Origin: Taxawa tesnikishii (nom. ined.)
Taxonomy: Eukaryota > Ascomycota > Dothideomycetes > Dothideales
Direction of reading: 5' to 3'
Length of the DNA stretch: 64,000 nucleotides
Assembly (NCBI GenBank): GCA_030247885.1
Contig: JAPDRO010000012.1
Coordinates: 248,001-312,000 of the forward strand
Part shown: positions 300-64,000 of the stretch, piece after piece
How the letters are laid out: each line of letters begins with the position of its first letter
Position numbering within the stretch: the first letter of the stretch is position 1
Made by a program: the position numbers and the translations under genes
The notes under the pieces: generated by a model
The model's input: only the letters and a program-made list of their open reading frames with translations
The model's database searches: none
What the model was told of the DNA's origin: nothing

Positions 300-3200
300 A
301 TGGACTGCGCCGCGCTCTCACCTCAGCATATGAACAATCGTTACGTTCATCTTCAAAATCACTTCAACGATAGTCAGCCGGTCGGTCAGTATGGGCAAAA
401 ACGACGGGTTTTGGAACGAACGGATTCGACCGTGAACCCCAGTACAACCGTTGGCCAGACGCCTTCGCAATTGCATTTCAATCCTCACCAGTATGCATTC
501 CCACCTCAAGGAACGAGTTCTCACTTTCGAGGCAACAACAGCAACATGCGTGCAGAGGTAGCGCGTAATAGCGGTTTGTCGGAGCACATGCTGCGACGGA
601 AGACGCCTAACGGTACGCTTAACGGCGCATACGAAGGTACTCCCACAACGTCAACCCTTTGAAGCATGTGTTACTTCCGGCACAAACTCCAGGAGACTCT
701 TACCAGGAGCATGCGAGCCTTCCGCAAATGGACTCTATGTTGCACCAAATGTCTCCGAGGTATTCGTCAATAGTGAGCATGTATAACCTATCGGTCCCAA
801 GTGCACTTCAGCCATCCTTCAACCACCTTGACCCAACGGCTTCCGGAGCAGAGAACAGAGGACCTTATGGTCCATACTGGCATGATGGTACCTACGTGCC
901 TTATCGTCCTGCCGCATTAAGGGATCCTCGGTTCTATGGGCAGGCCAGTGTGGGCTGGAACACACCAAATGGTCAACTACATCAGAAAGTGTCTTCGTGG
1001 CAAGATGGCAGTCGACAACGTCTGACACCCCATGGTTCTTTGGCCCATTCGTGGCTGCCAAGCAACGCTCCATTCGCCAGCCTGGCTGGAACGCCATCCA
1101 TGCCTCATTCGTTCGGTCTCGGTCATGCTCCGAGTTACGGAACCCCGTAAATCAAAGCGTCCAGTACGGCAGTTTTGGCCCTGTTGCAACACACATGAAC
1201 GCGCCAATGAACCAATTTGCTCTTCCTGACTCCTCTGGCACCTCCTTCGCGCTGAGCGATCCCTTGCTGGAATATGGTCCATCTTCTTCGAACGCACAGC
1301 AAAGAGAAAGAACATTCCACTGGGCATTGCAGCAGTACAGGGACCTGCTAGCCTTCATCCATCACACTAAGAGACAACACCGAGCAAACGGGCCGTTTCA
1401 CAACAATGCGAACAATCATCGACCGACCTTCTTTCCGAAGCCCCCAAGCTTTCGGGCGCACTTCTTCCTATCTCGTCTGCCAGCAAGTCATTTGATCCGA
1501 TAGAACCATCAAGAAGTACCACACAAGCAGGGAAGCAAGACCAGCGATCGACGGATGATTCTGTCTCAGCCACCGACGGGGCTCAAGACTCGAACCCAAA
1601 CGCATTGACACCGAAACCTTCAGCAATCTGGTCTCCTGGCGGACTGCATTTTCAGGATAATGAATATAACAACCAACAGCATCAGTTGGGCGATCAGCGA
1701 CAACTGTGGGGGAATACTATGTCGCGAATGTCTGATAAGCCTCGGACCCTCCGACGCTCCTCTGGAACTATCGTTTCACCCATAGTCCCTCCCTGTCCCC
1801 AAGATGACTCTCCTCCCTCTAGAGCCGCGCACGCGCTTCTCTTGGTATCTAGTCTTTGTCAGGAAACGGATTGGCAGTGGATCGACGGCATGCATCTTGG
1901 TGGCTGTCTGGCCTACGGTCTTGGGAACTATCAAAAAGCATTGAGATGGTACACGAAGGTTCTGGACCTGGACTCCAGGTGCGTTCAGCGGGGTCAAGTG
2001 CTGCACGATACTATCCAAATTGCAACTTACTGACAGTTTGTTCCTTACAGGCATCTCGAAGCGACATCGAATCTTGCCGCTACATTACTGGCTTTGGGGA
2101 GAAGACAAGAGGCTGAACAGCACTGGACGACGGTTGTCAAACTAGCGCCTAATCATTTCGAAGCTGTCGAGCACCTCGTCGGCTTGCTCTGCAACGAACA
2201 GAGGGGTAAAGACGCCATAAAAATCATCGAATACGTTGAGCGTTACCTCAAATACCGGAGAACAAACGACTTGTACAAGGCGGACAGTGAGTGTTCATCT
2301 TCGACAGCGAGCCGCTCGCCTGTTATTTCCGAGCTATCCGACCGCATGGTACACGACTTCGATGCGGATGCTGAGGGATATGGCAAGGATGCCCGAGATT
2401 TGCCGGAAGGTTCGGAGCCAGGCTACGGCTCGAGTGGATACGCGATCCCAGGGTCGGACAACGGACGCATACTTTCTCTGGTTCACGCGAAGGGCAACAT
2501 GCTGTATGCGCTTGGGGACAACGTCAATGCCGCCAAAGCCTTCGAAGATGCGGTATCAATCGCATGTGGCCGAAAGTTCGGCGGCATACAAGGCATCGTC
2601 AAGCATGTTCTGTCCGTGATATCCGCTACACCGGCAGCGGATATGCCGACGCGCTTCGAGCCAGAACTTTCATCTGATCCCGTCCTTCTGATGCCCGAGC
2701 AAGCAGTTCAGACTGCACGTTTGTGCTTTCCGCACTTTGGAGAGCTTCCGGGATTGCAGTACCTTTCCAAAGATCCACAGAGTCTTTCAAGAAAAACTGC
2801 AGTCTCCACTACGAGCAACTCGTTGCTATCTCTGGCGAAGATCTTTCAGGATTCCATGTCTCAAACCTCTCGCAATGCTGTGCTTTCTCAACTGAAATGC
2901 GGCGTGAGAGATATCCTCGCCCTCTACTACCTGTCCCTTTCCCTCCAGCCGAGCCCTTCTACGGCCAACAACGTCGGTATTCTCCTGGCTAGTGTTCAGC
3001 AATCTGCTCCGGCCGCCCAGCATCTCCTGCACTGTCGTACCTTCAAATGCGATATCCCGGGCGTGGTGCCTGGCAGCGGTATTGCGCTCGCGCTGGCGTA
3101 CTACAACTACGGCCTGAACCTCGATGCTCGTCACGCGCACCTCTACACCAATCTGGGTAGCCTTCTTAAAGACATCGGACAACTGGACGCTGCCATCGAC

Positions 3201-5363
3201 ATGTACAAGAGTGCTGTGCGATGCGATCCTAGGTTCGACATAGCACTTGCAAACCTTGCGAATGCAGTCAAAGACAAGGGCAGGATCTCTGAGGCAATCG
3301 AGTTCTACAAGCGAGCCGTTGACGTTAGTCCGGACTTTGCCGAGGCTGTTTGCGGACTTGCCAACGCACTCAACTCGGTTTGCGGCTGGCATGCAAGAGG
3401 TGGCATTGCTGCTAACGGTGGCAAACAAGATCGCTGGCACGTCGACCAGAATGGCATGCTCTTGGATGCGAGAGCTGATGGCGCCTCTAGCTCTGGCTGG
3501 ATCAAGCGGGTGGTTGACATCGTGGCGAAACAGCTCGCTGAGGGCGAACATTGGGGTCGTGGCACACTAACAGATTCCGTTATCGAGGACATCACACGGC
3601 AGGTGACCGTTCTCGACGCCAAACCTGAGGATCTGCAACAAAAATCACAGTCGCTTCGCAAGATCCTCGCCAGCTGGAGCGGCCGGAAATGGGAAGGAGC
3701 CAGGATCATCAGGCTGGTCGAGCGAGCAACCAGGCGGCTTGGTTGGCACTGGTATCAAGACAAGCACATCCGGAAGAAGCAAAGGACGGCGTCAAGTTAC
3801 ATCAGGCCTCAGCTGCCATCCTCACTCACTGTTCCTACCGCACCCACGGTCCTGCCCTTCCATACCTTCACCTGCCCTGTCTCGGCGAAGCAGGTCCGAC
3901 AGATATCGCAACGGAATGGTTTGCGCATTTCGGCTTCTACTTTGCAGTCTCCTTGGCTGCCTTCGCACGTCTACCCGCCACCCGCTCCGCCGAGTCCATT
4001 CTTGCGGGTCGGCTACGTGTCTTCGGACTTTAACAATCACCCCTCGCGCACTTGATGCAGTCCGTCTTCGGCATGCACGATCCTTCTCGTGTCGAGGCCT
4101 ACTGCTATGCCACCACGGCAAGCGACAGTTCAGTACATCGACGGCAGATCGAAGCAGAGGCGCCCGTGTTCCACGACGCGAGCAACTGGTCAGCGGAACG
4201 GCTCGTTAACCAGATCGTGCAGGACGGCATCCACATCCTCGTCAACCTCAATGGTTACACGCGTGGAGCCCGGAACGAGGTCTTCGCTGCTCGACCCGCG
4301 CCGATACAGATGTCTTTCATGGGCTTCGCGGGCACCCTGGGAGCGGAATGGTGTGACTATCTTCTCGCAGACGAAACGGCAGTACCGCCCAGTACACTGC
4401 GTCCATGGCGTCGGAACCTAGATCTAGAGGACGTCGTTGTCGACGAGAACAGCGACGACGGCGACAAGGACGAAGACTGGGTCTACGGCGAGAACATCAT
4501 CTACTGTCGGGACACGTTCTTCTGCTGCGATCACCGGCAGAGCGCGCCCGATTCGCAAGAGAGAAGATTAACTTGGGAGCAAGAGCAAAAAGGCGGTGGC
4601 AGATGCGCAAAGAGCTCTTCCCCACCATCTCCGATGACACGATCATCTTCGGCAACTTCAACCAGCTCTACAAGATCGAGCCCACCACCTTCCGGACCTG
4701 GCTGCGCATTCTGGCGCGCGTGCCCAACAGCATTCTCTGGCTACTCCGCTTCCCGGACCTGGGCGAACACCATCTCAAAGCCACGGCGGCGCACTGGGCC
4801 GGGCCCGAAGTCGCCTCGCGCGTCATCTTCACCGACGTCGCCCCGAAACACATGCACATTTCCCGCGCGAGAGTGTGCGATCTCTTCCTCGACACCGCCG
4901 AGTGCAACGCCCACACCACGGCCGCGGACGTGCTGTGGAGCGGCACGCCCTTGCTCACGCTGCCGAGGTACGAGTACAAAATGTGCTCGCGCATGGCGGC
5001 TTCTATCCTCAAGGGCGCGCTGCCCCCAAACACACGCCCGAGTATGCCTCGGCCGTCAAAGACCTTGTCGCGGGCGATGAAGACGAGTACGAAGAACTGG
5101 CCGTGCGGTTGGGCAATGGTCTGCTGTATCCGAAAGAGGGCGAGGGGGTAGGGAGGGGCAGGGGCCGGTTGGTCGAGTTGAGGAGGTTGTTGACGGAGAG
5201 TAGGTGGGGTAGCGCCTTGTTTGATACCAGACGCTGGGTTAGGGATCTTGAGGACGCGTATCAGGAGGCCTGGAGGAGGTGGGTGGAGGGTGAGGGTGGT
5301 GATATCTGGTTGGACAAGCTACCGCGAGGGGGCATGGTGGTGAAGGAAGTGGGAGAGAAGTAG
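300..5363 (+). CDS. O-GlcNAc transferase-like protein (TPR + GT41 catalytic domain), frame-disrupted in the sequence
   Basis: Predicted UDP-GlcNAc:protein O-GlcNAc transferase (GT41, OGT/SPINDLY-like), which would glycosylate Ser/Thr of nuclear and cytosolic proteins. The first ~500 residues are Ser/Pro/Asn/Gln-rich and look disordered. TPR-like helices follow (for example 3060-3360, with the DARHAHLYTNLGSLLKDIG type of repeat). The split catalytic domain contains the NNHP-LAHLM histidine region near 4035-4055, NFNQLYKI with the expected UDP-binding lysine near 4655-4675, and the DTAECNAHTTAADVLWSGT loop near 4890-4945. One clear intron lies at 1979-2050 (GTGCGT...TTACAG). Coding then switches frame six times, each needing one extra base: near 658-660 (TTT), 1144-1147 (CCCC), 1431-1445, 4040-4043 (CCCC), 4587-4591 (AAAAA) and 5023-5027 (CCCCC). 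With those six bases the model is exactly 1,666 codons. An acidic Asp/Glu insert sits near 4425-4485. The start is the first in-frame ATG; an upstream exon is possible. Confidence 0.85.
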
Positions 5364-11070: not shown

Positions 11071-13116
<2,046 letters not shown>

Positions 13117-15356: not shown

Positions 15357-16717
15357 ATGCGACTTGCGCACGCCTTTGCACGAGGCCCAAAGCTTTCTCA
15401 ATCGGCTTTCTCGTTGAATACATCAACTCTGTCCCATACTTGGCTTGGGATCAGGACTTTAAGCATCTCTTCCCCAAGCTACAACGCTTGGAAGCTGACC
15501 ATTCTCCCCACGAGTTCCAAGGCTCCCTCGGAGGCCATGGCCAAGCACAAGAGAGGCGGTAAGAAGGTGGGAGGGGCTCCTAAGAAACCTCCACTAACTC
15601 ACTTTCTCTGCATTCCATTGATCACTGCGGACTCGAAGCCGCAGCTCGAAGCAAGTCTACGAATGTTCAAGGATGACGTGGTTCACAACTACATACCGGG
15701 ACCTGCAACGGAGACGGAGGAACCGCTCGCTAGAGGACCAAAAGAAGAGGTAGAGTCTGCATCAGGGAGTGGCAGTTCTGATGACGAAGCATTGAAACCC
15801 CAGACCGAGAGAAGCGATGTCGTCCCGAAACCGGTACCTGCGCCCTTAGTCGCCGAGAAAGCTGTCAGACCTGTTGGCGCCATTCATCTTACCCTTGGAG
15901 TGATGAGCTTAGATGCCGACAAGCTCAAGGGCGCTGTACAGTTGTTGAACAACATCGACCTTGTAGGCCTGCTGAAACACCCTGAGCAAGCAACGCCTGC
16001 AAAGGCAATTACAGAAAACAACCGGCCGGCTCAGGAAGGAGACATTTGGACAGGCGAGACCACATCTGCACCAGCAAGTTTGACCAGGCCAATGTTGCCA
16101 CTGGACGTTTCTGGGAAGCCAGAAGCACTGATGGTATCCCTCAAGTCCTTGGAATCGATGCATCCGGCACACAAGACCTCGATATTGTACACTGCGCCAA
16201 AGGATCCTTCTGGAAGGCTATACCCTTTCGCAGACGCACTTCGGCGGCAATTTACGGAAGCAGGCTTTCTGCTCGAGGACAAGCGGCCGCTCAAGCTTCA
16301 CGCCACCTTGGTCAACACGATCTATGCAAAGGGCAGGAAACGACATCAGCGTCCAAACAAGAATGTCAAACCGTCAGACCAGCCGGAGGCGCAAGAAAAG
16401 AATCAGGTGGAAGGAGGCGAAGTCGCCATTGAGGGGCCGGCTACGGAAGACAAGAAGGAAGACGAGCAGGCTACAAAAAGGAAGCGGATGCTGATGAAGA
16501 TCGATCTCAAGGCCACGGACCAGATTCGAAAGCATCCCTTAGGATCAACGCGAAAGGCATCCTCGCCAAGTACAGCGATTATGTCTGGGCAGAGAATGTG
16601 GTTTTGGACCGTGTTGCGATCTGTGAGATGGGCGCTAGAAAGATTATGAATGGGGAAGGGAAAATCATCGATGAGGCGTACACTGAGATTGCTACGGCTC
16701 GAATCCCTATAGCTTGA
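15357..16717 (+). CDS. 2H phosphoesterase, AKAP7/ASCC1-like (AKAP7-NLS domain)
   Basis: Member of the 2H (LigT-like) phosphoesterase superfamily, which acts on cyclic or 2'-5' linked nucleotides. Both H-x-T motifs are visible: AIHLTLGVM (about 15885-15910) and LKLHATLVNTIY (about 16290-16325). The C-terminal YSDYVWAENVVLDRVAICEM motif is typical of the AKAP7/ASCC1 branch. Two acidic/Lys-rich linkers interrupt the domain (about 15700-15830 and 16330-16490). Near 16534-16541 the frame breaks by one missing base; reading resumes as RINAKGILAKYSDY and stops at 16715-16717. The ATG at 15537 (GCCATGG context, MAKHKRGGKK) probably starts the cytosolic form (394 codons with the base restored). The ATG at 15357 adds 60 residues rich in Ser/Arg resembling a mitochondrial presequence. 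Confidence 0.8.
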
Positions 16718-23218: not shown

Positions 23219-24815
23219 TCACCCTTCATGGTCATTCCCAATCTTCCTCTCGGCCCGCTTTTCCTGTCTCTCATGCCACACACACCACAGACTCCAGCAA
23301 AACCCGACGCCGCTTGCAACCAACGTGATGACGTACGCCTGGCTATAGCAGCTCTTTCCCTCCATGCAGAGCCTCTCACCACCATCGACATAGTCGCTAT
23401 GGGAATCCAAAATCCGCCCGTATGCGAGGTTGAAGATGTTCCCACTGACAACGGGGGACATGGTCATAGCACCCCAATTTATTCCCATGCCCGCTGCACC
23501 AAACGCATCGGCGACGAGGGCCGGGTAGACGCCGAAGAGGGCGCCGTATCCAAGCCCCGTGAGAGAGGACAGCCAGAAAAGTTGGTTCGGGTTCTCAATG
23601 CTGAGGGCGGCGATTTGAGCGACACAGAAGATGGTCGCGGAGGCCACGAGAGACCAATACCGGCTGCTGTGTAGGCGCTTGACAATGACGTCGGAGCCGA
23701 TACCGGAAGAGAGACGCCCGATGAAGGACAGGAAGGAGAGGATAGAAACGTGCATGAGCTGGCGCTTTTGAATGAAGTCGTGCGATGCGGAGTCATCGTA
23801 GTGGTGCCAGAGGGTTTTGGCGTTGTTGCCAATGTTGTTGATCGTCATGAGACCGACGCCGCAGAGGAGTCCGAGCATGATGAATTGTTTCCAAAAGGTC
23901 GAGTTGCGTAGGAGCGCCCAGCCTGTGATGTCTGGTTTGTGTGAGTGAGATCCTTGCGTGGGGGTCTTGTCGTCGTCAGGCATGTCCCCGGGCAGGAGAT
24001 TAGGGACGAGGTTTCGTCGGCTGTTTCGACTGTACCTGTATGAAGAGGTTGGAAGCTACTTCCGGGGGCATGGTGATAGGAAACGTCGTTTTGAAAGAAC
24101 AGTACAAGAAAAGGACTTACCAGGTTCGTCGTGCACGCTAGCCTTGCTGCTGTGTCTGCTATGGCCTGATGTGGTGCGGTGCAGTTGGTTTGAGTCTTTG
24201 CGCGTGTATGCCGGTCGGCCCCCTTCCTCGGTGGGCAAAGACTGATACGGCGAAGGCGGAGGCGTCATGCGAAGGAACAGCATACCGCCGAACACCAAGC
24301 AGAAAGTGCCGATGGCCAGCATGAGCAGGTAGTTGGCGGTGTTGTCCGGGAACGCGAATCCACTGATCAGTGTAAAGGCAAATGCGCTTAACCCGAACGC
24401 ACTAAGAGGGAATGCAGTCGCGGTTCCGCGATGGTGAGGCCAGTTGGTGGCACAGACCTTGAGACACCCGGAAAAGGCTGAACAACTCCCCACGCCAGTT
24501 AAGAAGCCGAAGAAAGATAAAGCAGAGACGCTCATGGAACCGGCACCCTTCACGTATGCCGAGTAAAGTGGGAAGTATCCGCATGCCAGGCAGATGGATC
24601 CAAGCAGTACGCCCCATCGTGGGCCTCGAGAGTCGATGAGTACGCCAATGGGTATGCCGGACGCGTACATGCCGATATTGCCTGCGCTACCCTTGTATTG
24701 TTCAGCCCCTTTTCCATAACGTTCTTTCCCGGATTGAGCTCACGATAACGTTGCTTTGTGTAGCAGACAGCTGCATCCGTTCTGCGAATTGCGGAGCCCA
24801 TGCCGAGTATGCGTA
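23219..24815 (-). CDS. MFS transporter with nodulin-like domain (monocarboxylate-carrier-like), 5' end unresolved
   Basis: Membrane carrier of the nodulin-like/MCH branch of the MFS; substrate unknown. Exons read YAYSAWAPQFAERMQLSATQ (24815-24744), then GSAGNIGMYASGIPIGVLID (from 24691), six N-terminal helices, a polar central loop with Ser/His residues, and six C-terminal helices ending at a Lys/Arg-rich tail. Introns are 24743-24692 and 24120-24036. After the second intron the reading (TVETADETSSLISCPGD) reaches the main C-terminal frame only if one base is added at 23986-23992 (plus-strand CCCCGGG). The exon with the first membrane helix must lie upstream of 24815. A GGCACCAAC ending at 24870 before GTTCGT would give the family's G-T-N before YAYSAW, but I could not extend it to a start codon. 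Confidence 0.75.
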
Positions 24816-25525: not shown

Positions 25526-27038
25526 ATGGGCGCAGCACTGTCTCTCCCTCTATTGGCGCTGCCCAGTGTGGGCACAGTAAGCCTCTCCTTTCCCATGGAA
25601 AAACCCGCACACTTACACCTACATCCCAGGTCATGACCTTCGCCGCATCATGCTGCGGAGCCGCTACCTGCTCGGCAGTCTGCAGCGCATGCGGCAAATG
25701 CAACAACAGCATGGCCACGCGCATCGCCTATGCCGTTATCCTCCTCCTCAACTCGCTCCTTTCATGGATCATGCTCACCGACTGGGCTGTCAAGAAGCTC
25801 CAGCACGCGCTCCTGGACTACACCACCATCACCTGCAATGGAAAAGCATGCACCGGATTCGTCGCCGTACAGCGCATCAACTTCGCCCTGGGTTTCTTCC
25901 ACTTCATCATGGCGCTGCTTTTGATCGGCGTCAACAGCACAAGAGACAAGAGATCGGCTATACAGAACGGTTTCTGGGGCCCTAAGATTGTTGCCTGGCT
26001 GGGTCTTATTGTCATCACCTTCCTCATTCCGGACAGCTTCTTCGTCACTTGGGAGACTACTTTGCCCTCGTTGGCGCCGTTTTGTTCCTACTTCTGGGTC
26101 TCATCCTGCTTGTCGACCTCGCTCACACCTGGGCCGAATTCTGCTTGGAGAAGGTCGAAGACACCGACTCGCGTGCCTGGAAGGTCCTTTTGATCGGCTC
26201 GACCCTGGGCATGTACTTCGCCTCGATCGCAATGACCATCGTCATGTACATCTTCTTCGCGCAATCTGGTTGCTCCATGAACCAGGCAGCCATCACGGTC
26301 AACTTAATCCTCCTCCTGGTAGTCTCCGTTATAAGCGTACACCCCGCGATTCAAAGCGCTAACCCGCGCGCTGGCCTCGTCCAAGCCGCCATGGTCTGCG
26401 TCTACTGTACCTACCTCACCCTCTCTGCCGTCGCCATGGAGCCTGACGACAAGCACTGTAACCCGCTCGTGCGCGCTCGCGGCGCCCGCAAAGCTACCAT
26501 CATCCTCGGTGCCGTCATCACCTTCCTCACTGTCGCTTACACCACCACCCGCGCCGCCACCTACGGCCTCGCCCTCGGAAAAGGCAAGGGTTCGCCCGGC
26601 GGATACTCCGCCGTCGGCTCTAGCGAGGCGGAACATGGACTTGTGTCCACCCAGCCGGAGTCCAGACGTGAGATGCGCGCGCAGGCGCTCCGCGCTGCCG
26701 TCGCTAGCGGTTCCTTACCTGCGTCTGCGCTCGACGATTCCGACGACGAGTCGGATGATGAGGACGATGCCAAGCACGGCCGCGACGACGAGCGCAATGG
26801 CACGCAGTACAACTATACGCTCTTCCACGTCATCTTCCTTCTCGGAACGATGTGGGTCGCGACGCTGCTGACGCAGAACATTGGCGCTGATAAGGGGATC
26901 GAGAAGGGCGATTTTGTGCCTGTGGGCCGTACTTACTGGGCTTCTTGGGTCAAGATCGTTAGTAGTTGGGTGTGCTACGGTATCTTTGGGTGGACCCTTG
27001 TTGCGCCGGCGGTCATGCCGGATAGGTTTGATTACTAG
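25526..27038 (+). CDS. Serinc/TMS1 family membrane protein (serine incorporator)
   Basis: Multi-pass membrane protein of the Serinc family (yeast Tms1), linked to serine-lipid metabolism or lipid scrambling in endomembranes and vacuole. Seen: short exon MGAALSLPLLALPSVGT (25526-25576), intron 25577-25629, then VMTFAASCCGAATCSAVCSA with the family's Cys cluster, and about ten hydrophobic helices. Conserved pieces include FWGPKIVAWLGLIV, NPRAGLVQAAMVCVYCTYL and the ending YGIFGWTLVAPAVMPDRFDY. A hydrophilic Asp/Glu/Ser-rich loop lies at about 26690-26790. One base is missing at 26051-26053 (GGG): FFVTW must be followed by GDYFALVGAVLF in the next frame. With it the gene is 487 codons (486 aa), usual for fungal members. 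Confidence 0.92.
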
Positions 27039-27705: not shown

Positions 27706-28733
27706 ATGCCATACCCGCAACGCAAGATCGGCGACACGCCAGTCTCCGCCCAAGGCCTCGGCTGCATGGGCATGTCATTCGCCTACACCTCCTTCGGTGG
27801 TTACGACGACACTGAATCTGCCCGTGTGCTTACCCGCGCTGCCGACCTCGGAATCACCTTCTGGGACACGTCCGACATTTATGGGCCCGAGACCAACGAG
27901 CGACTCATCGGCAAGTGGTTCAAAGATACTGGACGACGCTCAGAGATCTTCCTTGCCAGCAAGTTCGGGAACACGTATGAGGCAGGGAAAAGGAGTAACA
28001 GCGTGAGAGGAGATGCGGCGTATGTGAAAGAAGCGTGCAGCAAGAGCTTGGAGAGACTGGGTGTAGAGACGATTGATCTGTACTACCAACACCGCGTGGA
28101 TGACAAGACACCCATCGAAGAGACGGTCAAAGCTATGGCGGAATTGAAGCAAGAGGGAAAGATCAGATACTTGGGCCTCTCGGAATGCTCAGCCCGCACT
28201 TTGCGTCGTGCGCACGCCGTTCACCCAATTGCGGCCATCCAGATGGAGTACTCCCCTTCGCGCTCGAGATCGAATCAGACCAGACACAGCTGCTGAAGAC
28301 GGCCCGCGAACTCGACGTAAAGATCGTGGCTTATTCTCCTCTCGGCCGAGGATTCCTGACCAACACGATTAAGAGCAGAAGCGACCTCGACCCCAACGAC
28401 AACCGTGTCAATCACCCTCGCTTCTCCGAAGAACATTTTGGCGAGAACCTCAAGCTGGTCTCGACGCTCTCATCGATTGCGCAGAAGAAAGGCGTCACTC
28501 CGGGTCAACTGGTCCTTGCATGGGTGCTGGCGCAGGGTGAGGATTTCATCCCGATTCCGGGTACAAAGCGGGTTAAGTATCTGGAGGAAAACGCGAAGGC
28601 AGTGGATGTGAAGCTGAGCAGCGAGGAGGTGAGTGAGATTCGGAAGGAAATCGAAAAGGTGGGTGGTGGGAAGGGTGCGAGGTACCCTCCCGCTATGATG
28701 GCAAAGTGCTTTGGAGATAGCCCGGAGCTTTAG
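27706..28733 (+). CDS. Aldo-keto reductase (AKR8/13, YakC-like)
   Basis: Cytosolic NADPH-dependent (alpha/beta)8-barrel oxidoreductase; natural substrate not predictable. Family features in order: [19 protein letters not shown], active-site Asp and Tyr in [17 protein letters not shown] (about 27865-27920), Lys in LASKFGN, His in [10 protein letters not shown] (about 28080-28105), [20 protein letters not shown], the late-barrel SPLGRGFLT, and the NADP-binding [18 protein letters not shown]. The frame breaks at 28253-28256 (CCCC): MEYSP must continue as [19 protein letters not shown], needing one base. With it the gene is 343 codons (342 aa), normal length. The ATG at 27706 (AAGATGCC) is the only sensible start. 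All four catalytic residues are present, so I regard the enzyme as functional despite the break. Confidence 0.9.
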
Positions 28734-29376: not shown

Positions 29377-31143
29377 ATGCTAGTCTCCACATTGATCATC
29401 GGCGCACTCTTTGCGTGCAGAACAAGCGCTGCACTCTACTATCCTGACGTCCAAACTTCTCTTCTCGAACACGTTCTCGTCGACAACTGGGGCGCATACG
29501 CTTCAAACTTCTCCTCAGCGATCACCCCTTGCAACAGATATGTCACGCAGACAGGAGACGCCGCAGTCAAGAGCGGCCGCACGACGGCAGCACAATGGAT
29601 CCGGGTTCTGTTCCACGATTTCGTTACCGCCAATGTCACTGCAGGCACCGGTGGTGTCGATGCGAGCATAGGTTTTGAGACGGCGCGCGGCGAGAACTCC
29701 GGCAGCGCATTCAACGACAGCTTCACATTTTGGCGGCCCTTCGTTAATGATGCCGTTTCGAGTAAGTCCCATCCGTTCGTAAACGGCCACAATGGAATGG
29801 GTTGAACAAGGGCTGACAGCTTTGGAGTGGCCGACCTTGTCGCCCTTGGGACCGTCATGTCCAACAACTTGTGCGGCGGCAGCAATCTTCCGTATCGCGC
29901 CGGCCGAGTAGATGCTACCTCCGCTGACCCTACAACCGGAGTACCAGCTCCAGAAACGGACTTGGACACGACGCTGCTCTTCTTCGAAAGGGCAGGATTC
30001 GACAGAACAGACGCCATCGGTCTTACCGCTTGCGGGCACACGATGGGCTCGGTGCATCACGTACGTACAAAGGAGGTCCCGATTGCTGAATAGAATTCTC
30101 CTGGCGGTAGTTGACGATGCAAAGGGTGGCTTCCCAGACGTTGTCGATGCATCCGCCGTCACATCAAACAATACCAACGGCGGCATCAATTTCGACTCGA
30201 CAAGGGCTGCCTTCGATCCGGTCGTCGTACAAGAATACCTTTCGTGGACAGGACAGAAGGGTGGGCCTTTGGTCACCACCAACAATGTCACCACGCGCTC
30301 CGACCTGCGCTTGTACGAAAGCGACAACAACGCCACCATGCGCTCTCTCCTCGCGCAAGGAGCCGGCTTCCTGGACACCTGTGTCGACCTCATGGGCCGG
30401 GCCATGAACACCGTACCATCGTCTGTGCACTTGAGTCAACCCATTACCGCGCTGCCGGTAAAACCGGTTAACGTCACGTATAGTTTCGGAGCGGATGGGA
30501 AGTTGATGCTCTCGGGCAGGATCAGGGTGGGCCAGATATCACGTCCTCACCTGCTAGGATGTTGCAGTTCCGCTGACGTTTCCTGGTAGATCCTCACCGC
30601 TGCCGGCGCAGTGAACCCAACCTCCCTTACCCTTAGCATCTCCAACCACGCATCTAAACTCACCCCGAATCGACAACGGGAACTTCAGTCTTCGGCCGCA
30701 CGGCTTCGACTTACGGAACTACGACCTACTTCCCGTTTTCGCTGACCGGCGATACAGTGCGCAACGCAAACACCTTCTCGATTTCCGGCTCCGGTATCAG
30801 CACGCAGTCTTTCGCGATCCAAGGCCAGAACTTCGTTGTTCCCAACCTGACAACACTCTCAGGCCTCACTGTCAACGCGACAATTGCCAGCTCGGCCCAC
30901 GCGTGCAACGCTTTCACTGTTAGGGTTGCGGCTCCGCATGCCCAAAGCGGGACACTGGCGCCGAGGATCGTCGAGAAGGATGTAAGTGTTGCTAAGGTCG
31001 CGAACCGCACCGACGGGTATACGATTTGCCACGGTGTCATACAACTGGACAATGTGCCCACCGGCGTGGTCTCTGTGAAGGCGTTGGTCGGAGGGCAGGT
31101 CATAGATACGTTGATGGTAAATGGCGGATCTGCGGGATGGTAG
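29377..31143 (+). CDS. Secreted haem peroxidase (plant-peroxidase superfamily, fungal class II-like)
   Basis: Extracellular H2O2-dependent haem oxidase. The signal peptide MLVSTLIIGALFACRTSA is followed by the distal-haem helix TTAAQWIRVLFHDF with catalytic Arg and His (about 29585-29620), the Ca-binding GGVDASIGFE, FGVADLVALGTV, and the proximal haem ligand in GLTACGHTMGSVHH (about 30020-30060). A ~190-residue Ser/Thr-rich C-terminal domain follows. Introns: 29762-29819, 30061-30124, 30527-30589. Two single-base deficits occur: one at or near the first acceptor (29819-29820), where FGVADLVALG is otherwise out of phase, and one at 30663-30666 (CCCC), after which TSVFGRTASTYGTTTYFPF reads through. 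With both restored, the model is 528 codons. There are many N-x-S/T sites. No manganese site or Trp for lignin oxidation could be verified. Confidence 0.85.
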
Positions 31144-40780: not shown

Positions 40781-43700
40781 TCAAGCAAAGCCGAAGTATT
40801 CGCTTCCCGCAGTCATGGCCGTGTACACCTGCTGACGGAGAACCTCATAGCTGTCATATTCTGGAAGATCAAGTTCTGAGCAACTTTGTCAGTATACAGT
40901 AGCAACTATGTGTGGAATGGACAGAGACTTACGGTTGAAGCATGTGTGACTGCTCGGTAGACGATCCTTGCTGCCGTAATCCCGGTGGATGTTGAACTTG
41001 GAGAAGCCGTTCATGCCCTCCAACTCCTTGAACCCGTTGAGCGGGACCTTGCTCGTGCCTGTCACGAACTGGAGCAGCTTGGCCTTCTCTTCCTGGTCGA
41101 AGCTGCGGACCGCGCGCCAGAACCACTGGATCTGTGGAGACGTGGCTTGGTAGTTGTGATACTCCGTATTATTCTTCCAATCGTCGACGTCGATGTCCGG
41201 CAGACCAGAAATGAGGAGCTCAAGCTCTTGCTCGTTGAATATGGAGATGAGCTCCGCGGGAATGATATCGTTGAATCCTGTGGGTTCTTGTCAGCGGTGA
41301 TCGTCAATGCCAAGGAGAATCATTAGAACTCGCCTTGGAGGAAATTGTCCAGCTGCTGTTCGACAGACTTGGTTAGACGCTGCTCGACCACCAAGCGAAC
41401 ATACTCCTGCTTGTTTTCTTCGGTGACGGGAACGTTGCGGCCGTTGGGAATGAGATCGACCACTTCAATGACGCCGAACTTGTCAATTTCTAACGAGAAG
41501 GTCTCGAACGTAACGTCCGTGATGTCGTTCTCAAGAATCCAGCAGAGTGACTTGTAGTAGTCGAGATCCAGAGTTTCCATATCCTTGAGTGACACTTGCT
41601 TGCCAAGGACACGCTTGTAGACAGCTCTGCTGAAGTGACAGTCCAGAACGCGACCCTCGTAGAGAGCCTTCCCAATGATCCTTCCAATGAACTTGAAGAA
41701 TGTCAGATGCTCCGGGTTGATTTCGCTGAGCGGGTTCGGGTGGAAAGTAGTCCTGTCCGATGCCACCGGGTTGAACAGGGCGTAGTTTGGGTCGAACATC
41801 TGCCTGGACAGCGCGCCGAACCATTCGCGAGTAACACCACCGGCATCCACACCCTCCTCGCCCTGAAAGCGGATGTTCAACTTGCCATACTTGATCTCAT
41901 TGGCGCTCTTGTAGTACAGCGATCTGAAGGAGTCGAGGAAAATCTGATCGCGACGAATGTTGAGTTGCAAGTTGCCGTGGGTGTTGACACGGTCAGCGGC
42001 CGACCGGTCGTGGATCTTCCGGGTGAAGTAGTTACGCTTGTTGTCAAAGTCGAGAACCTTGGAGTTCTTGACAAGCACGGAGAAGGTACCACTCATTAGC
42101 TTAGGGTTGTGGCGGACCAAATCGTTGAGAATCTTTCGGTGCTCATCGGTAAAGGTGAAGAAGAGGTTTTCAATGCGTGACTCTGGTGCGGGGCTGCTCA
42201 TCAAAGTTCCTGAGACGCTGCCATGTGCGGCGCGTCCTTGAGTGTGGTTGTCTTGCACACGACCATGAATGCTTCGATGACCGGTTGCAGGATGGTAGCC
42301 ACGTTGTTCATAGTGGCGCGCTCACGAACAGCGGTCAAGCACTCACTGAGTGCGGACCACAGCTTGATGAAGATGGAGCTCTGGTAAAGAGTCGAGAGGA
42401 TGTCTTCCTTCACCTCCTGCGGCATGGTTTCGGCGTCGGGAGCTGGCCTGTCCTGCAATTGCGCACGCTTGGGGTCAAAGATATAGTCGAGAGCGACCAG
42501 AACCCTGAGCAGCTTGTTCTGATGAGAGCTTCCGGGGAGAAGTTGGCCAAAGTCAGGCCTTGCACGTCCGTGCTAGACTGAGCACTTCTGACTTGGGACG
42601 TCAGGCGTGGTAGATCATTGAGTATCATTTCTCCAAGTTCCTGTGCACGACGGGCCAGCTCTTTGCCGAAGATAGCTCTGGCGCCCGGGATAGCAGACAG
42701 GTTGTTGATAATGTCGATGACATTAGACAACGTCTTGCTGCTGCAGTCGCGGGCGGTGATAATGTTGACAACCAGGCCAAGATTCTCCTCTGGCACTTCT
42801 GGAGGAGTGAGGTCGCGGTGCTTCTTCTTTTCCTCGGCGCTGGCTTCTTGAGGCTTGTCCGAGTTTGACGGTTCAGCTTGCGCTGCGGATTCGGCGTTAG
42901 CTGACGTGCCTTCAGTCATCGACACATCCGCAGATGGAGCAGCAGCAGCATTGGCGGTAGGCTGGGCTGCATCTGCCTTCTCCTTCGCCTTTTCAGCTTC
43001 CTTGGCGCGTCTTTGGAGAATCTTGAGAGGTTCAGTAACTCTGATGAGCAATGCAGCAAGATGTTCCATGACCTGGGTGTTTTCGATGATGGTTTTGCGA
43101 TCCAGCAGAGTCAGCAGGGCATTCAGCGGGAACCTCGATGCCCTAGACTCCTTGCCCTTTCCTTTCTTGGAGGCCTTGGTTCGCTGGCTGGTGATGGTGT
43201 CATGCTCGGAAAGGAAGAATGAAGCGACACGAGGGTTGTCATGCGCCAAAGTGGTCAATGTTGACAAGCACTGAGCTACGATCATAAGCGGAGACATCTC
43301 AGTGTTTGGTGGCGCCACCTGGCCAGCAAGCGATCGCTTTAAAGGAGTCTTTGGTGGACCAGACATCTGCTTGGCCCGAAGGGTGAGCTGAGCAAAGCTC
43401 CTTTCCAGTGCACTCGAGTCTGCCGTCCCATCTTGAAGGATCGACAATAGAATGCTGATAACTTCAGCGCGGTTTTGAGTGTTCTTGCAGAGGTCAGAAA
43501 GGATGCCATGCATGGTAGTACGGGCGCTGCCTTGCATGGAGACGAACATCAGGCGCAGAAGTGTCGCAACACCTGCTTTGTCCAGCATCTGTACGACTGG
43601 GCGACGGGGACGGTTCTGCTCCTGTTCGGCAGCCTGATCGCCGCGTTGCTGTTCGCCGCCTTCTCCGCGTACCATTCGTTCGAAGCGGTTCATGCTTTGT

Positions 43701-46700
43701 GTGAGGCGGCGTTCACGGCCATAACCACGAGCTTCGGCTTGTAGCTCCGGTGGCAGGGCGGCGATTGTGGCGTCATCGGCATCCATCAAGACACTCTGTC
43801 GGAGACCAGGATCAAGCATGGCAAGGAAGTCGGCATTGCCCAATTCTTCGGGCTGGGCTGGTGCCGCCGCTCCACCGCCGCTGGCTTGAGCACGACGACG
43901 GGCCTCGTCACGCTCTCTGCGGCGTCTATCCTGGGCTTCGGAGCGGAGGAGTTCTTGCTGCATGTCTGGCGGTAGTGCCTCGAGGAACTCACGACTGATC
44001 TCGCTTGGTTGGCCTTCTCCTGCTTGAACAGCCGCTGATCGTTGTTCAGCAAATTGCTGCATGATGACTTCCTCACGGAAATCTTCAGGCAAGGCCTCGA
44101 GATATTCTGCATCGATACCAAGGTTGGTGATGTCCAATTCCCGACCACGGATGGTAGTCGTGACGCGAGGAGCTGAAACCGCTGATTCAGCTGCAGTCTC
44201 GGTCGCTGGTTGGCTCTCCTCAACACCTTCCATGGGCTGCTCGGTTGCTCCACGCTCAGCTTCTTCACGGGCGCGTGCAGCGGCTTCTTCGGCTTCTCTG
44301 GCCTCGCGCTCCTCTCTCTCTTCTTCTCCTTGGCCTCGCGCTCTGCCTTCTCCGCTTCGGCCTTCTTGCGTTCTTCTTCCCTGGCCTCCTCCTCAGCAAT
44401 CCTGCGCTCCTCCTCAGCCTTCTCGCGAAGACGCTTGGCTTCAAGGGCAGGAGGTACGAGGAGCTTCAGAATCGAGGTGATGACATTCTGGGCCTTCTCT
44501 GGTGCGCGTGCGCTGAACAAAATCCTAGCCTCATCCTGCCAACGGGCAACAGTGAGCATCGGCGTGAAAGACACGGCCTGAGCAGGGTCGGTCGAGCTGC
44601 GTGGTTGGGCAGAGGAGTCGTGGAAGTGAGGCGGCATTCTGCGAGAAAGAGCCCCTCCATAAATTCGTAAACAGTGTTTCTGTTGGGGAACGTGAAGGGG
44701 CCAAGGTTTGCCATTGGAGGCGGACCACCGACTTGAATGATTTGAGGCAGTCCACCAAGGAACTCGGGTGGCGGTCCTCCCACAACGTTGATGCGCGTGC
44801 CACCAGGGCCAACCAACTCGACGACGTCCGCACCCGCACCAGCTGGCCGGCCGGCGAGTCGTGCCAGCAGACCACCAGGTCCGCCGCCTCTAGTGCCGAG
44901 GAGCAACTCGTCCATGGTAGAGAGCTGCCTCATTCCACCTTGTCTCAAGAACGATCCCGCGCTTGTGCGAGCACGTTGTAACAACGGGTTAGTTCCATCG
45001 TCGTTTCCTCTTGGCGTGCCACCACCACGATGCGAGCGGTAATTGGGGTATCCGATGCGATCGTCAAGTGACATACCCCATGGATCGCCTCTGTGATGAT
45101 GGTGATGGTGGCTGCGGAGCAAGCCTGGACCGGGTTCGTCGAACTGCCAAACACCCATTTGCTCTTCATCATCTTCCATCTCGGGCTCGTAGATAATGTC
45201 TTCGCCGTCGTAATCTTCCTCTTCCTCTTCGTCCTCATCATCAGGAGGCATTTCATCGTCGAAATAGTCGTCGTTACCCATACCCGCATCAATCTGGACG
45301 TCGCCTCTGGCAAGCACGTCCATAATCTCCGAGTGGTCATCTTCCAAGACACGAGCAAGGTTGTCCAGTGTGCCCATATGGAACGGCGGGCGTGGTGGCG
45401 CGTGGGCGCCGTCAGCATCATGCTCATCATAATCGCCGGCGCCTTCGTCCTCCCAATCCTCCTCTTCCTCGCCGCCTTCTCCAAGACTGGCGTTCTCGTC
45501 GTCGCCAGTGATCTCTTCAAGGATTTCGATATCATCACCCTCGTCCTCATCCTCGTCATCCATATCTTCGTCGTCATCCTCGTCTTCGTCACCTTCGTCA
45601 TCGTCCTCGTCGTCTTGATCATCGTCATCATCATCATCCACGACGATTTCGAGGTCCATATCGACATCTCCAGGCCGACCCTCAATCTCACCCATGTCCT
45701 CCATACCTTCAATCTCCTCATCCTCGTCACTGACGGCTTCATCGTGGTCCGGCTCATCATCTTCGTAGTCCATTTCCTCATCATACTCGTCGCCGTACAT
45801 GTCTTCATCATCTTCATCCTCAGAACCAGACTCGTCATCGTCGCGACCGGATTCAAATTGGCCCAAGGTCGAATTGCGGAAGAGATCCGGTGTTTCCTCG
45901 CGCTCCTGGTCGTCGTCAGAGACTGAGGTTGCAGAAGAAATCTCGTCCTCTTCGCTAGTGCCGGGCGCGTTAGGGAGGTCGGAAGTGGTGCTGAGAGTGA
46001 TGGCAGTGTCGGTAAGCCATTTCAGAGGGCGAAGGATGTACTTAACAGCGCGTTTGGCATTCGGAAAATTCAAGTCGATCTCCGCAATCGATGCTGTCAA
46101 GGTTGTGATGAAGTTCTTCTCGTACATCAGCTTGCCCAGCTGCTTCTGGGAGGCGACGAGCATGTCCATACTGGCGTTGTTGTTGTTGGCAGAATTCGGC
46201 TTGCCGGTCAACATGCGGTTGAACAGATCACTGAGACCAAGCAAGCGAGCATACTTCGAATCAAGGGCCTCGGAGGAATTGAGGGCGTCCTTGTAAGCCC
46301 TCAGGGCATGTTCGAGGACAAACTTGCGCACGTAAACAAGCTCAGACTCCTCCTCGTCAGTCGGCAGCATGCGCTCGCTGGTCTTCGAGCACAATGCAAC
46401 GACCACAGAGATGGCCCAATTGGACGTTGCCATGCGCTTCCGATGAGGAAGGTCATCTGCATGGTTCAGAGTTCCAACCGGAATCAGGTTGTTCAGCAGA
46501 TAATTGAGGATCCCAGAACGAGGCTTTGACGGCGTCGATGCCTGGTAATCTGCCTTCCGCGAGAAGTTGATGAACTCAATCTTGGTACGGTTGTAATTGG
46601 CCAGAAGCTCAACAAGGCATTGCAGGATAAAGCAGCGGTAGACGTATGTTGGATGCTGATCTGCCTTGAAGACCGGCTTCTCGTTAATCTTGTTCGCTTG

Positions 46701-54012: not shown

Positions 54013-55481
54013 TCAAGAGACACTCGCCGCCCTCGTCCTCAGCCCACCACCCTTCGCAACATCGATCTGAAAACCAGGTGCAATCTCGTTTCCCAACGGA
54101 GCATCATCCCCAGCCGGCTCCGTCGTGGCCCTCTCCCAACGGTCTTCGTTCTCCAAATTCTCCTTATCCGTAAACTCTCCCGTCAACTTCTCCTCAAGTC
54201 TCTCCTCCTCCATCTTCTCCTCTGCGCGTCTCCGCATCTCCGGTTTCTCGCTCTCCTGGACCGCAATCCTCATCATCACCTCCGGCTTGCTCACGAAGGC
54301 CTCGCTCCAATCCGCACTCCGCCACTGCACAGGACGCACCACCAACCTCTCCGCATGAGCTTCCATCTCGCATTCCAGCACGCTCATCTCCGCATCCTCT
54401 GTCAAACCGATTCCCTCCAGGATCCTTGCCTCGAATTCACTGTGCTTGGAAAAGTCAAGAGTGACATACTTCCAGTCGTTGACGACGGTGCTCTCCACCA
54501 ATGAGTTTCCGAGGCTAGCTTCGGTAAGTTCGGCGGAGAGGGAGTGATGGGACGAAACCAGCTGCAAGACAGCGGAAAGGAACAGCCTTCCCACACGCAC
54601 CCGCTTCGGGTGCGCATCAAAACCTTGCCCGTTATGAAACTCGGTCCCTGACGGTAGCGGTCGCGCAGCTGCTGGAGACGTTGAGCTGATCGACTTGAGA
54701 AGGGGTTCTCCTTTGCACTAGTTGCATTGCTGGGTTCGCTGGTTGGCTTGCTGGAAATGTCCGTCTTCGGCTTCTTCGCCTTCGACATGGTGGGTGCGGA
54801 CGTGGGACCGCGCTCTGCTACGCTCGGGCTGGCAGATGCTTTCTTTCGCTTTGTTGTAGCCTTCTTCCGTGATTTCGGCAGTGGCTTGAGGCAAGTTGGA
54901 GAATCGTCCGGCTTCGCCTCCGGGTTGCTGACAATTGGAGGCGTTGATGTAGGGTTGGAGTCGATCTTCACGGCTGAATCAAACTTCGGTGGCTCGGGCT
55001 CCTTCGTTGCGGATGGGGTTGAGGGCGACTTGGCCTCCGTCTCTCCAGGAGCATCTTGTCGTAGCGACGGCGACAAAGGAGGAGGTGGGCTGATGGCGTG
55101 TGGGATGGTCTCATCAGAATCTTCCTCTCCAGATTCAAATGAAGTAAGTATGCTTAAACTGCGCTCAGGTGTCTCCCTCGTGTCCTGTTGCGGCGTCGAT
55201 GGTGGCGGTTGGGCTTGAAGCGCATCGTCTTCTGTAACGTCTGTCTTTACTTTCTTTGCAGACACTCCGATTTGCTCTCCTTCGATCTTTCTATCACCAG
55301 TCACCCCGTGCTCTCCCCAAACTTTCCGTGTAAAGTCGCGTCCGCTGCCATCTCGTTCGCACTGCGCTTCGCCATCTTTCCAGAAGGGTAGCGAGATACT
55401 TATCCGAGTGATTGAGCCCTCGTAGATGCGAGAATCAGAAACTGACAGCGCTGGTGAGGTAGCAAAGATTCCGCGCTCCAA
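54013..55481 (-). CDS. Nuclear-looking protein of unknown function
   Basis: A 490-codon frame once one base is added at 54619-54622 (AAAA on plus strand), where KENPFSSRSAQRLQQLRDRY continues into FDAHPKRVRVGRLFLSAV. The N-terminal ~70 residues look folded (SRIYEGSITRISISLPFWKD). A ~200-residue Pro/Ser/Glu-rich linker follows with Lys-rich segments (KSRKKATTKRKKASASPS; KAKKPKTDISSKP) that look like bipartite nuclear localisation signals. The conserved-looking C-terminal domain contains VNDWKYVTLDFSKHSEFEAR and a charged helix (MRRRAEEKMEEERLEEKLTG). No domain recognised. The start is an ATG at 55481; a further upstream exon cannot be excluded. Confidence 0.65.
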
Positions 55482-56196: not shown

Positions 56197-57786
56197 TCAT
56201 GGGTTTGGCCCACCGTCCTGCGCACCAGGCACATCGCCCGTACTCTTCACATCCGCGTGCGCGTCCCCATTCACAGCGCCCGCATTCGCCTTCTCGCTCG
56301 TCTCCGTAGGCGCATGCTCCGCTTTACTCCCCTTCCCTCTCCACGTACTGACCGCAGGGATCTTCGCATACCATCTATCCTCGACCGTTCCATACGCTCC
56401 CGGCGTCAGGCGAATCAGCGTGTGCAGCGGCACCTCCATCCATGGGCTCTTCTCCTGATCGACGCCCATGAAGTATGCATAGATGCACCGCAGCACCGCC
56501 TGGTGCGTCACGATGAGGATGTTTTCGCTGCGCTCTAGCTCCATGATGATGGGCTCGAGGCGGATGACTACGTCGCGGTAGCTCTCGCCGCCCAGGTAGC
56601 GATAGTTGTACTTGTCATCGTCGCGGGATTTGAAGTCGGCCGGGTAGAGAGCTTCGATTTCGGCGTAGGTGAGCGAATCGCACACACCCGAGTCGAGCTC
56701 ATCGAGCGCTTTCCAGGAGAGCTTCTCGAAGGGGAGGTAGCGCGCGGTTTGCAGAGTGCGCTTCAGGGTCGAGGTCCATACGGTCAGTTGCCGGTCGCCG
56801 GCAGATTCTTTAACCAGTTCAGGCAGTTTTTGGCGTAGAGCTGGCCCCGCTCACTGATGTCGGCGTCGCCGCCGATGCGGCCGCTGAGGTTGAACATAGA
56901 CTCGCCGTGCTGCGAGTGTTGTCAGCTAGTGCAGATTCTCGGGGGTTGGCGCGGCCAAACGTACCCGTGACAGCCATATGGACCGTGGCCTGATGTGCAG
57001 GTTCATGAGATAATACACCACCCTCGACTGCAGATAGTCTTGAATCTTGTTGATGATAACCTGATGCCCAACATCGATCAATTTGCAGTACGTCAGGTCC
57101 GACTCGTCCTCGTCCAGTGTTTGATACACCTTCTCGTAGTTCCGTATCCTGTTCCTGAAATCCTGCGCTGCCACCTCCGGGTCTAGGCCTTTGTAATCTG
57201 GTGACGTTGTCTTCACTTCCTTGATGTTCGACATGATCAACTCTTCGTCGTCGCACTTTGATTCCACGAATAGCGTGTCGATACCGGCTTCGTCGCAGCG
57301 ATTCTGGATCCAACGCCTGCGCGACTTGGTCGAGTTCGTGGCATCGAGAATGGCGACCGATCCTTGGCCGGTCTGGAACCAGTGCACCATGTCGTTCACT
57401 GCCGCTTCGGCAGCTGCTTTCCGTAACCGTTCGCCTTCTGGGTTGGTGGTGTCGAAGAAATCAGCGGTGGGGGTTGGAGTAGCTGTCCGACGGTACTGTC
57501 CCACGTTGAAGGTCTTGGCAGTGATTGAGAGCCATTTCAAATAGCGTACGACTGGGCGCGCTCGTCAGTTGTGGAAGAGCATGCCTTGTAGGATAGACGT
57601 GCCTTTTGAAGCGATCAGACTCTTGCCTCTTGCGGGCAGGCCAACCATGACCACGCATATCCGGGTTTCTTCAGCCTGCACTCCTGCTCCGTTAGTCCTC
57701 CTGTTCGGTCTCATGATCTCCGCCGCCGTCACTCCGCGCATGTTGGGCTTGTATTGGTCGATTCCATCTCTCGGGTCTCCGGCCAT
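56197..57786 (-). CDS. 6-phosphofructo-2-kinase / fructose-2,6-bisphosphatase, bifunctional
   Basis: Cytosolic enzyme setting the level of fructose-2,6-bisphosphate, the activator of phosphofructokinase. Kinase half: CVVMVGLPARGKSLIASK (Walker A, about 57655-57605), RYLKWLSITAKTFNVGQYRR, AILDATNSTKSRRRWI, TLFVESKCDDEELI and DLTYCKLIDVGHQVI. Phosphatase half: histidine motif SRHGESMFNLSGRIGGDAD split by intron 2 exactly between Arg and His, WTSTLKRTLQTA and ENILIVTHQAVLR with the second active-site His. The R-H-G-E motif is intact, so bifunctionality is likely. Introns: 57602-57552 (GC-AG, GCACGT) and 56964-56910 (GT-AG). One base is missing at 56827-56831 (TTTTT on plus): LYAKK must continue LPELVKESAGDRQLTVW. 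With it the gene is 495 codons. The acidic/Ala C-terminal tail is presumably disordered. Confidence 0.92.
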
Positions 57787-61709: not shown

Positions 61710-64000
61710 ATGCCTAGACGCAGATCCTCACCTCGCACCTTCTCCAGCATAACTCCCGCAGCGGTCAGGCGCCTGTACCGCTCCGCGTTCTCAACCCCTC
61801 GCGATCGCGGCAAGACTCGCAGCCCCATTGTAAACTTGCACCCCGACTGGCCCTACCATCGCCCCGTCCCACCACCAACCCCTCACCGCTCGCACCACCC
61901 ACGCCTCGAGACTCTGCTCCGCTCCACCCGTGGCATCGGCGCGGCTTGCCTCGACGCCATCCTCCACAACACCGGCGACGATCGCAGCGCCTGCGTCGAT
62001 GCCGTCCGCGCCGATACGCCCGAGAGGATTCAGTTCGCTCGGGCCATGCTCGAGATCCTCAAGCCGTTTGGTTGGGTGGGGCTGAAGAGGGGGAGATTGA
62101 GTTTTACAAGAATGAAGTGAGTATCAAGTAAGAAGGAAACCCCGGGCAAGGTTCTGAAGGGATTGGAACGAACCCGGTTGGCTGATTGCTCGTCTTGGCA
62201 GATCAGGAGGCTAGAGGCCGTGTTTGGGAGCGATGGGGGAGCGGTTGGAGAAAGTGGGCGTCCGGAGCATCACTCGGGGGAAGAGGGTATAGGGATGATG
62301 GCAGCGAGCAGGGTAATGGAGTTGATGGGAAGGGTGATGAACCGATGTGGGGAGGTCCGTCAGGTGCATCGTTAACGAGTGAGCCTGACGAGTATCGTAC
62401 GCACGGTGAACGCGAGTACAGGCAGCGTCTCCGTGTCGCCGGTTGGAGTGGAGATGTAGCTTCGTCTGCTTCTTTACAAACAATCCCGCAAGCGAGAGAC
62501 CGACTAACGGAAGGTGCGATACAAAAACAGACTCGTGGGGGCGAAGCGCCGGTCGATCCTCTTGAAGCGGCGTTGAATGTGCTCGAACCTCATCTTACAA
62601 CCGGAAACCGGGACGAGGCACTGACGGCTCTGGAAGACCACGTAGGAAGCGAGGGGCGTGCTGGAGAGGAGTTGCAAACCCGGACAGCTGTGGATCGCGC
62701 CCCTGGCGAACTCGATTATAGGCAGCGCCTCAACGAAGCCGGCGGACAGTCGTACGGAAGAGGAAGAGGAGGTGCAGTTTCTCCTGCTTCTTCGGAGGAG
62801 ACGGTCATTGCACCTCCAGTGGCAGTGCGTCAAGTAACAGAGGACGCCGACCATCATGGGTTAGACTATCCGGAGTACCTGCCCGATGCTGAACATTGTG
62901 GGCCAGTCGAAAACTTGGACCACGAACGAGAACAAGAGGCATGGGCCAACGAGTGGCGCGATGAAGATGCGGCAACCAGAGCCAGACGAGCAGCAATTCG
63001 AGCAAATGGACTCCGTGGCGAAAGGGAAGGTCATCCACCTGCGGCTGCAACGGATGATCATTGGCGGCAAGTCGAGGCACGCGAAGCCGCGCAGAGACAC
63101 GGTGGTGAGTGCGCAAACGGAGACAATGCGCTCCAAGAAGAGTTGGATCTCCGTCCACCGCGAGCTACCTGGGACCCTCTCGCTCACGGCGCCAACCATA
63201 TGCCAACAGTAACGCTCAACCATCCCATTCCTGCTGCTGCTCCAGCGCGGCCAGTGCCACACTATGCGCCCACCTCATCTGGCTCGAGATCTTCGGTGCC
63301 ACGTTCCAACCCGGGCGGCATGGACAACAGCCCTCTCGCTGTCCAACCAGTAGGTGCAAGCCGGTACCAGCTTCCTGCTCACCCTGCGAATCAAGATATT
63401 CTCGAGCCACCGCCTACTGCTGACCAGAATAATGGGCAAGCTACCGCTCCGCAACAGCGGCGCCCAGGCTACGCGTCTTCTGCTTCATGGTCCACGATGC
63501 CACCCTCCAGCGCTGGTGGCGATGACAACGATGTTCTGGTTCAGCCGATGGGCGAGAACTACTATCAGCTTCCTGCGCACCTTGGGAACCAGAACGACAC
63601 TCCCCGTCCGCCATCTGCTTTCCGTTCTCCTTCGGTCCCTAATCGTCCTCCCTCAGCTCAAAAGTCCGGACAGCAACCCCGCCACGCCTATGCGGAGACG
63701 GTACCCGAGACGGTAGCACCACGTAGCGCACGTGTGAACTGTTCCCAACAGACATTGTTGCGTACCGTTTCGAACCCAGGCAGCGCTTCGAATCTGACGC
63801 TCCCGTTCCGGCACCCAGTCCAGGGCCGGTCCGCCAACCCGGCGCCGCCGAATCAGCAGGCCGGCTCACCAACTCAAGACGTCCTTGGGCCTCTTCCCAC
63901 TCTCACCCACCAAAACCTCGCACGCCATCAATCCCACCATTCAAAGTCTGGCCCGTCCACAGCTGCAACGCACTCGAATTGGCGCTCACAGACCGCACGC
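61710..64000 (+). CDS. Large Pro/Gln/Arg-rich protein of unknown function, 3' end outside the window
   Basis: Exon 1 encodes MPRRRSSPRTFSSITPAAVR, then a helical stretch RSTRGIGAACLDAILHNTGD ... RIQFARAMLEILKPFGW. One missing base near 62078-62081 (GGGG) moves into EEGEIEFYKNE, followed by a GT-AG intron 62117-62201 and IRRLEAVFGSDGGAVGE. Another single-base deficit near 62337-62352 would join a frame that is open without a stop from 62342 to the window end (>550 codons). That long frame is Arg/Gln/Pro-rich with internal duplications: EREYRQRLRVAGW and ELDYRQRLNEAGG; RYQLPAHPANQD and YYQLPAHLGNQND. If the second join is wrong, the long frame starts as its own gene at the ATG 62345. Family unknown. 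Confidence 0.55.

What the first reader, a model, noticed from the sequence alone, without database searches (positions are those of the whole stretch)
300..62352. About twenty single-base deficits, all of one polarity, interrupt otherwise conserved genes
In 11 genes the frame switches by exactly one missing base: OGT at 658-660, 1144-1147, 1431-1445, 4040-4043, 4587-4591, 5023-5027; RVB1 at 11466-11470; 2H phosphoesterase at 16534-16541; MFS at 23986-23992; Serinc at 26051-26053; AKR at 28253-28256; peroxidase at ~29820 and 30663-30666; TOM1 at 44646-44648, 44311-44312, 42532-42537, 42196-42230; unknown at 54619-54622; PFKFB at 56827-56831; right-edge gene at ~62080 and ~62345. Nearly all sit in runs of 2-5 identical bases. 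No break (outside the decayed protease) needs a base removed. Restoring one base each makes every complete model a whole number of codons. Conserved residues continue beyond each break. Homopolymer under-calling by the sequencer is the simplest cause. Programmed -1 slippage or insertional RNA editing would also look like this and would be remarkable.
Basis: partly seen in the sequence, partly recalled or inferred. Interest (0 to 1): 0.85.

Follow-up and report, generated by a model that had tools for sequence, protein, structure and literature searches.

The report
Missing bases from nanopore assembly errors
The repeated one-base gaps that break genes in this desert-crust fungus are very probably errors left in a nanopore-based genome assembly, not a biological signal, but they do damage published gene models.

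Summary
The window matches the assembly of Taxawa tesnikishii JES_119, a soil-crust Dothideales fungus sequenced with 194.58x Nanopore and 25.38x Illumina. For 5 of the 21 an intact same-species protein was found: one matches TOM1 in 3852 of 3853 residues through four breaks and ends inside an intron, so it was read from unspliced sequence, almost certainly genomic DNA; one matches the unknown gene in 429 of 430 residues. A homology-free frame model with equal penalties missing and 0 extra bases in the window, 34 and 6 in 20 other stretches, at a similar rate. Inverted copies within one organelle contig disagree in run length. Published BUSCO falls from 97.4% (Illumina) to 92.9% (Nanopore). 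Ribosomal frameshifting, RNA editing and pseudogenes are not needed. The deposited OGT model bridges breaks with false introns and loses conserved residues.

The parts
4040..4043 (+). OGT: frame +3 to +2, one base missing
   Evidence: 6 of 6 relatives aligned change frame here; coding model
4588..4591 (+). OGT: frame +2 to +1, one base missing
   Evidence: 6 of 6 relatives aligned change frame here or just upstream; coding model at 4599
5019..5043 (+). OGT: frame +1 to +3, one base missing
   Evidence: 4 of 6 relatives aligned change frame near here, the other 2 do not reach it; coding model at 5018
658..1445 (+).
   Evidence: staircase of open frames +3, +2, +1, +3; one relative supports the last step; not called by the model
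11448..11470 (-). RVB1: one base missing
   Evidence: the frame before the break reads up to HGIP, the next continues [15 protein letters not shown] like PDB 5fm6; coding model
16521..16541 (+). 2H phosphoesterase (Pfam AKAP7_NLS): one base missing
   Evidence: coding model; Pfam match of the 5' piece only
23986..24020 (-). MFS transporter: one base missing beside an intron edge, weak
   Evidence: coding model only, with a 7-nt stub
26046..26056 (+). Serinc: frame +1 to +3, one base missing
   Evidence: Pfam PF03348 profile positions 1-139 and 137-434 in the two frames; coding model
28253..28278 (+). Aldo-keto reductase: frame +1 to +3, one base missing
   Evidence: Pfam PF00248 positions 3-171 and 171-288 in the two frames; coding model
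29761..29828 (+). Peroxidase: intron, possibly with one base missing just after it, inconclusive
   Evidence: the model uses an intron with an unusual acceptor; a canonical acceptor would need a missing base
30663..30729 (+). Peroxidase: frame +2 to +1, one base missing
   Evidence: coding model only
44652..44655 (-). TOM1 break 1, one base missing
   Evidence: P0001 exact on both sides, one-base step
44318..44322 (-). TOM1 break 2, one base missing
   Evidence: P0001
42533..42536 (-). TOM1 break 3, one base missing
   Evidence: P0001
42202..42206 (-). TOM1 break 4, one base missing
   Evidence: P0001
54622..54626 (-). Unknown gene: one base missing
   Evidence: P0241, 429 of 430 residues exact, one-base step; the coding model misreads it as an intron
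56826..56832 (-). PFKFB: frame -3 to -2, one base missing
   Evidence: coding model; kinase and phosphatase domains on either side
62080..62345 (+).
   Evidence: the model uses introns 62117-62214 and 62456-62530; no family hit for the main open frame

Best explanation
The missing bases are uncorrected consensus errors of a Nanopore-led hybrid assembly. Long reads under-count bases, mostly in short runs, and part of the sequence was left without effective short-read correction. The gene predictor then bridged broken frames with false introns. Shown here: intact same-species sequence at 5 breaks, one-sided polarity in other parts of the genome, run-length differences between copies within the assembly, and one damaged deposited model (OGT). 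Inferred: that the same holds for the 16 breaks without a same-species comparison, and the exact step at fault.
For: Identity: P0121 is NCBI H2203_005728 of Taxawa tesnikishii on a 974,396-nt contig, the length of contig C4 that holds the window; contig C1 is 2,828,030 nt, the maximum printed for JES_119. TOM1: P0001, source 'lgn', contig 16,154 nt, matches 3852 of 3853 residues in five blocks stepping one base each; its last residues GEF and the stop are read from an intron. Unknown gene: P0241, 429 of 430 residues, one step. Coding model: window 14 deletions, 0 insertions; 20 other stretches on 15 contigs 34 and 6; 0.34 and 0.29 per kb of coding, P = 0.62 for a difference. Inverted copies within contig C25: 24 gaps, 22 of them one base and 23 in a run by eye, against 18 mismatches over 13,013 aligned columns in four comparisons. 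A C28 tRNA is one base shorter than its C26 twin. Paper passages: guppy 3.4.4, 194.58x Nanopore, 25.38x Illumina, MaSuRCA, BUSCO 97.4% Illumina against 92.9% Nanopore.
Against: 6 insertions were called outside the window, above the null mean of 0.9, so the bias is strong, not absolute. TOM1 break 2 shows an observed run of only 2. The C26/C28 pair has more mismatches (14) than gap events (9), and comparison C25f/C25g has 8 mismatches and 1 gap, so some of these copies may really differ; the tRNA argument is weaker for that. I saw no reads. 'lgn' is read by me as Logan, an assembly of public reads (recalled); no call shows the read type behind P0001 and P0241.
Confidence: 0.97

Rival explanations
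1. Programmed ribosomal frameshifting: the DNA really lacks the base and ribosomes slip at these sites.
For: Conserved residues continue in the next frame after several breaks.
Against: Same-species sequence has an uninterrupted frame at 5 of the 5 breaks for which one was found. By eye, the 10 sites whose context was printed share no motif. A one-base difference also occurs between two copies of a tRNA gene, which is not translated, though those copies also differ by substitutions. About 0.3 detected per kb of coding is far denser than programmed sites known in fungi (recalled).
Confidence: 0.01
2. Insertional RNA editing: the base is absent from DNA and added to the RNA.
For: One polarity in the window.
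Against: P0001 keeps the frame and then runs into an intron, so it was translated from unspliced sequence. P0241 lies on a 5,393-nt contig for a 430-residue protein. Copies within one organelle contig disagree with each other in the assembled DNA.
Confidence: 0.005
3. Genuine pseudogenes or strain-specific frameshift mutations in JES_119.
For: P0001 and P0241 could come from another strain of the species.
Against: RVB1 and TOM1 are core eukaryotic genes (recalled). Amino-acid identity is complete apart from the first residue, no sign of strain divergence. Decay would be expected to give both polarities. BUSCO is 97.4% for the Illumina assembly of the same isolate.
Confidence: 0.015

Closest known systems
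Nanopore homopolymer-length errors breaking fungal genes, described for Drechmeria coniospora (PMC7500977; passages seen)
   Same: Frame-breaking single-base errors, mostly in runs, in fungal assemblies; BUSCO is not sensitive to them; the passages also warn of improbably short introns.
   Different: There polishing introduced more insertions than deletions; here deletions dominate and the passages of the JES_119 paper that I saw name no consensus polishing.
Gene-fragmenting errors in long-read assemblies of small genomes (Kastor, PMC12007338; abstract and section headings seen)
   Same: Assembly errors that make genes look like pseudogenes.
   Different: Tested on bacterial strains, to judge by a section heading.
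Programmed -1 ribosomal frameshifting (recalled)
   Same: Frame change with conserved residues on both sides.
   Different: Needs a base absent from the DNA and a slippery motif; not met where tested.

Membership tests
Long-read assembly indel error | Independent sequence of the same species has an intact frame | tested here: met
   5 of 5 breaks for which such a sequence was found. Three protein searches were made; the OGT one returned only the deposited same-species model, which is itself broken. No same-species comparison for the other 16 of 21
Long-read assembly indel error | Same polarity and rate elsewhere in the assembly | tested here: met
   34 deletions to 6 insertions in 20 stretches on 15 contigs; 0.29 against 0.34 per kb of coding
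Long-read assembly indel error | Enrichment in runs of one base | tested here: met
   10 of the 15 supported sites were tested: longest runs sum to 36 against 21.6 +/- 2.4 at random, 0 of 5000 draws reach it; 2 of the 10 show a run of only 2
Long-read assembly indel error | Copies of one sequence inside the assembly disagree in run length | tested here: met
   C25: 24 gaps, 18 mismatches in four comparisons that share one copy. C26/C28: 9 gap events but 14 mismatches, and C25f/g 1 gap and 8 mismatches, which do not fit as well
Long-read assembly indel error | Raw accurate reads carry the extra base | not testable with these tools
   reads are not held
Programmed ribosomal frameshifting | Genomic DNA truly lacks the base | tested here: not met
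   P0001, read from unspliced sequence, is intact through four breaks
Programmed ribosomal frameshifting | Shared slippery motif | tested here: not met
   contexts of 10 sites compared by eye only
Insertional RNA editing | Base present in RNA and absent from DNA | tested here: not met
   intact frame in unspliced sequence for TOM1; RNA itself was not available
Pseudogene decay | Both polarities of frame change | tested here: not met
   0 insertions called in the window at penalties -9 to -16, 1 at -7

The most novel reading that the evidence does not exclude
A few of the 16 breaks not compared with same-species sequence could be true deletions in JES_119 that the cell tolerates by slippage, or by real loss of the gene.
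Probability: 0.02. Interest if true: 0.6.

Novelty: not a real feature. Interest (0 to 1): 0.08.

Why it matters
It guards against reading biology into this assembly. The one deposited model that I compared, OGT, carries false introns and lacks conserved residues: at the first break it loses an 18-column stretch, 17 columns of which are at least 90% conserved among the 11 relatives chosen. Studies of gene loss, intron gain or frameshifting in this fungus could be misled.

Tried and rejected
Tried without result: Rfam search for the nuclear 18S rRNA (machine error, not repeated); 5.8S search, no match; PDB and NCBIfam for the peroxidase middle piece and the right-edge open frame (no hits). Papers: one search lists one paper that names the species and one search lists 8, of which I opened only that one; the passages seen do not discuss frame errors. 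Searches were listings from which I opened two papers.

Considered and rejected: introns as the cause of all frame changes (P0001 and P0241 run without a gap across 5 of them); a phenomenon of this window alone (rate like the rest); clustering of errors (4 of 4 TOM1 breaks lie in the last 3,330 of 11,555 nt, P = 0.007, a post-hoc test, but the 20 stretches show no significant over-dispersion, P = 0.14), so I claim no clustering.

Weak points: the coding model was trained on the same 264 kb on which it was run, and it turned one verified break into an intron (54515-54600), so its counts are probably low. One of the 20 stretches (L001) had no coding call. My first pattern for the TOM1 3' intron caught only 5 of 118 relatives; a corrected one found 94 of 103 contiguous, and 7 of the other 9 look contiguous by eye. 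The 6 OGT relatives and the 11 were chosen by me from 120 listed. P0124 also gives a weak +3 match at 4674-4754 that I do not explain. On recheck I corrected the number of contigs behind the 20 stretches (15, not 16) and now state that the C26/C28 and C25f/g copies differ more by substitutions than by gaps; I left the odds as they were, because the case rests on P0001, P0241 and the polarity counts.

Full report
What the window is. The held genome has 29,367,862 bases in 34 contigs and the window is C4:248001-312000. A protein search with one OGT open frame returned P0121, NCBI H2203_005728 of Taxawa tesnikishii, on a contig of 974,396 nt, the length of C4. C1 is 2,828,030 nt, the maximum scaffold length printed for isolate JES_119 in PMC11195213; that table gives 29,383,553 bp in 38 scaffolds, slightly more than is held. 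The taxonomy places the species in Dothideales. From the passages of the paper that I saw: Oxford Nanopore with guppy 3.4.4, 194.58x, plus Illumina 25.38x, hybrid assembly with MaSuRCA. The single use of 'polish' in the main text concerns Exonerate alignments. BUSCO completeness is 97.4% for Illumina and 92.9% for Nanopore.
Noticed in passing
G000 contigs C25 and C26/C28 (loci L021-L050): The assembly holds two different organelle (probably mitochondrial) sequences: SSU rRNA stretches of C25 (L022) and C26 (L021) align at 90.8% over 660 and 84.8% over 368 positions. A second organism or a divergent mitotype is possible.
   Followed up: partly
G000 contig C25, 80,121 nt: tRNA genes are mirrored about ~14.1 kb and ~49.6 kb, so the contig looks like a head-to-head concatemer.
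   Followed up: partly
whole genome G000: No 5.8S rRNA match at E <= 0.001 in the 34 held contigs; the paper lists 38 scaffolds. The nuclear rDNA may be missing from what is held.
   Followed up: no
window 54013-55301, strand -: The unknown gene has one hit at E <= 0.001 among 7,990 scored candidates, apparently from its own species: an orphan gene at this sensitivity.
   Followed up: no
window 41278-41333, strand -: The last intron of TOM1 appears to begin with GC rather than GT (GCGAGT ... CACAG), a minor donor type, judged by eye from the sequence.
   Followed up: no
G000 stretches L002, L004, L007, L008, L012, L020: One extra-base call each, 6 in all, against a null mean of 0.9: a minority of insertion errors, or introns the model does not know.
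   Followed up: no
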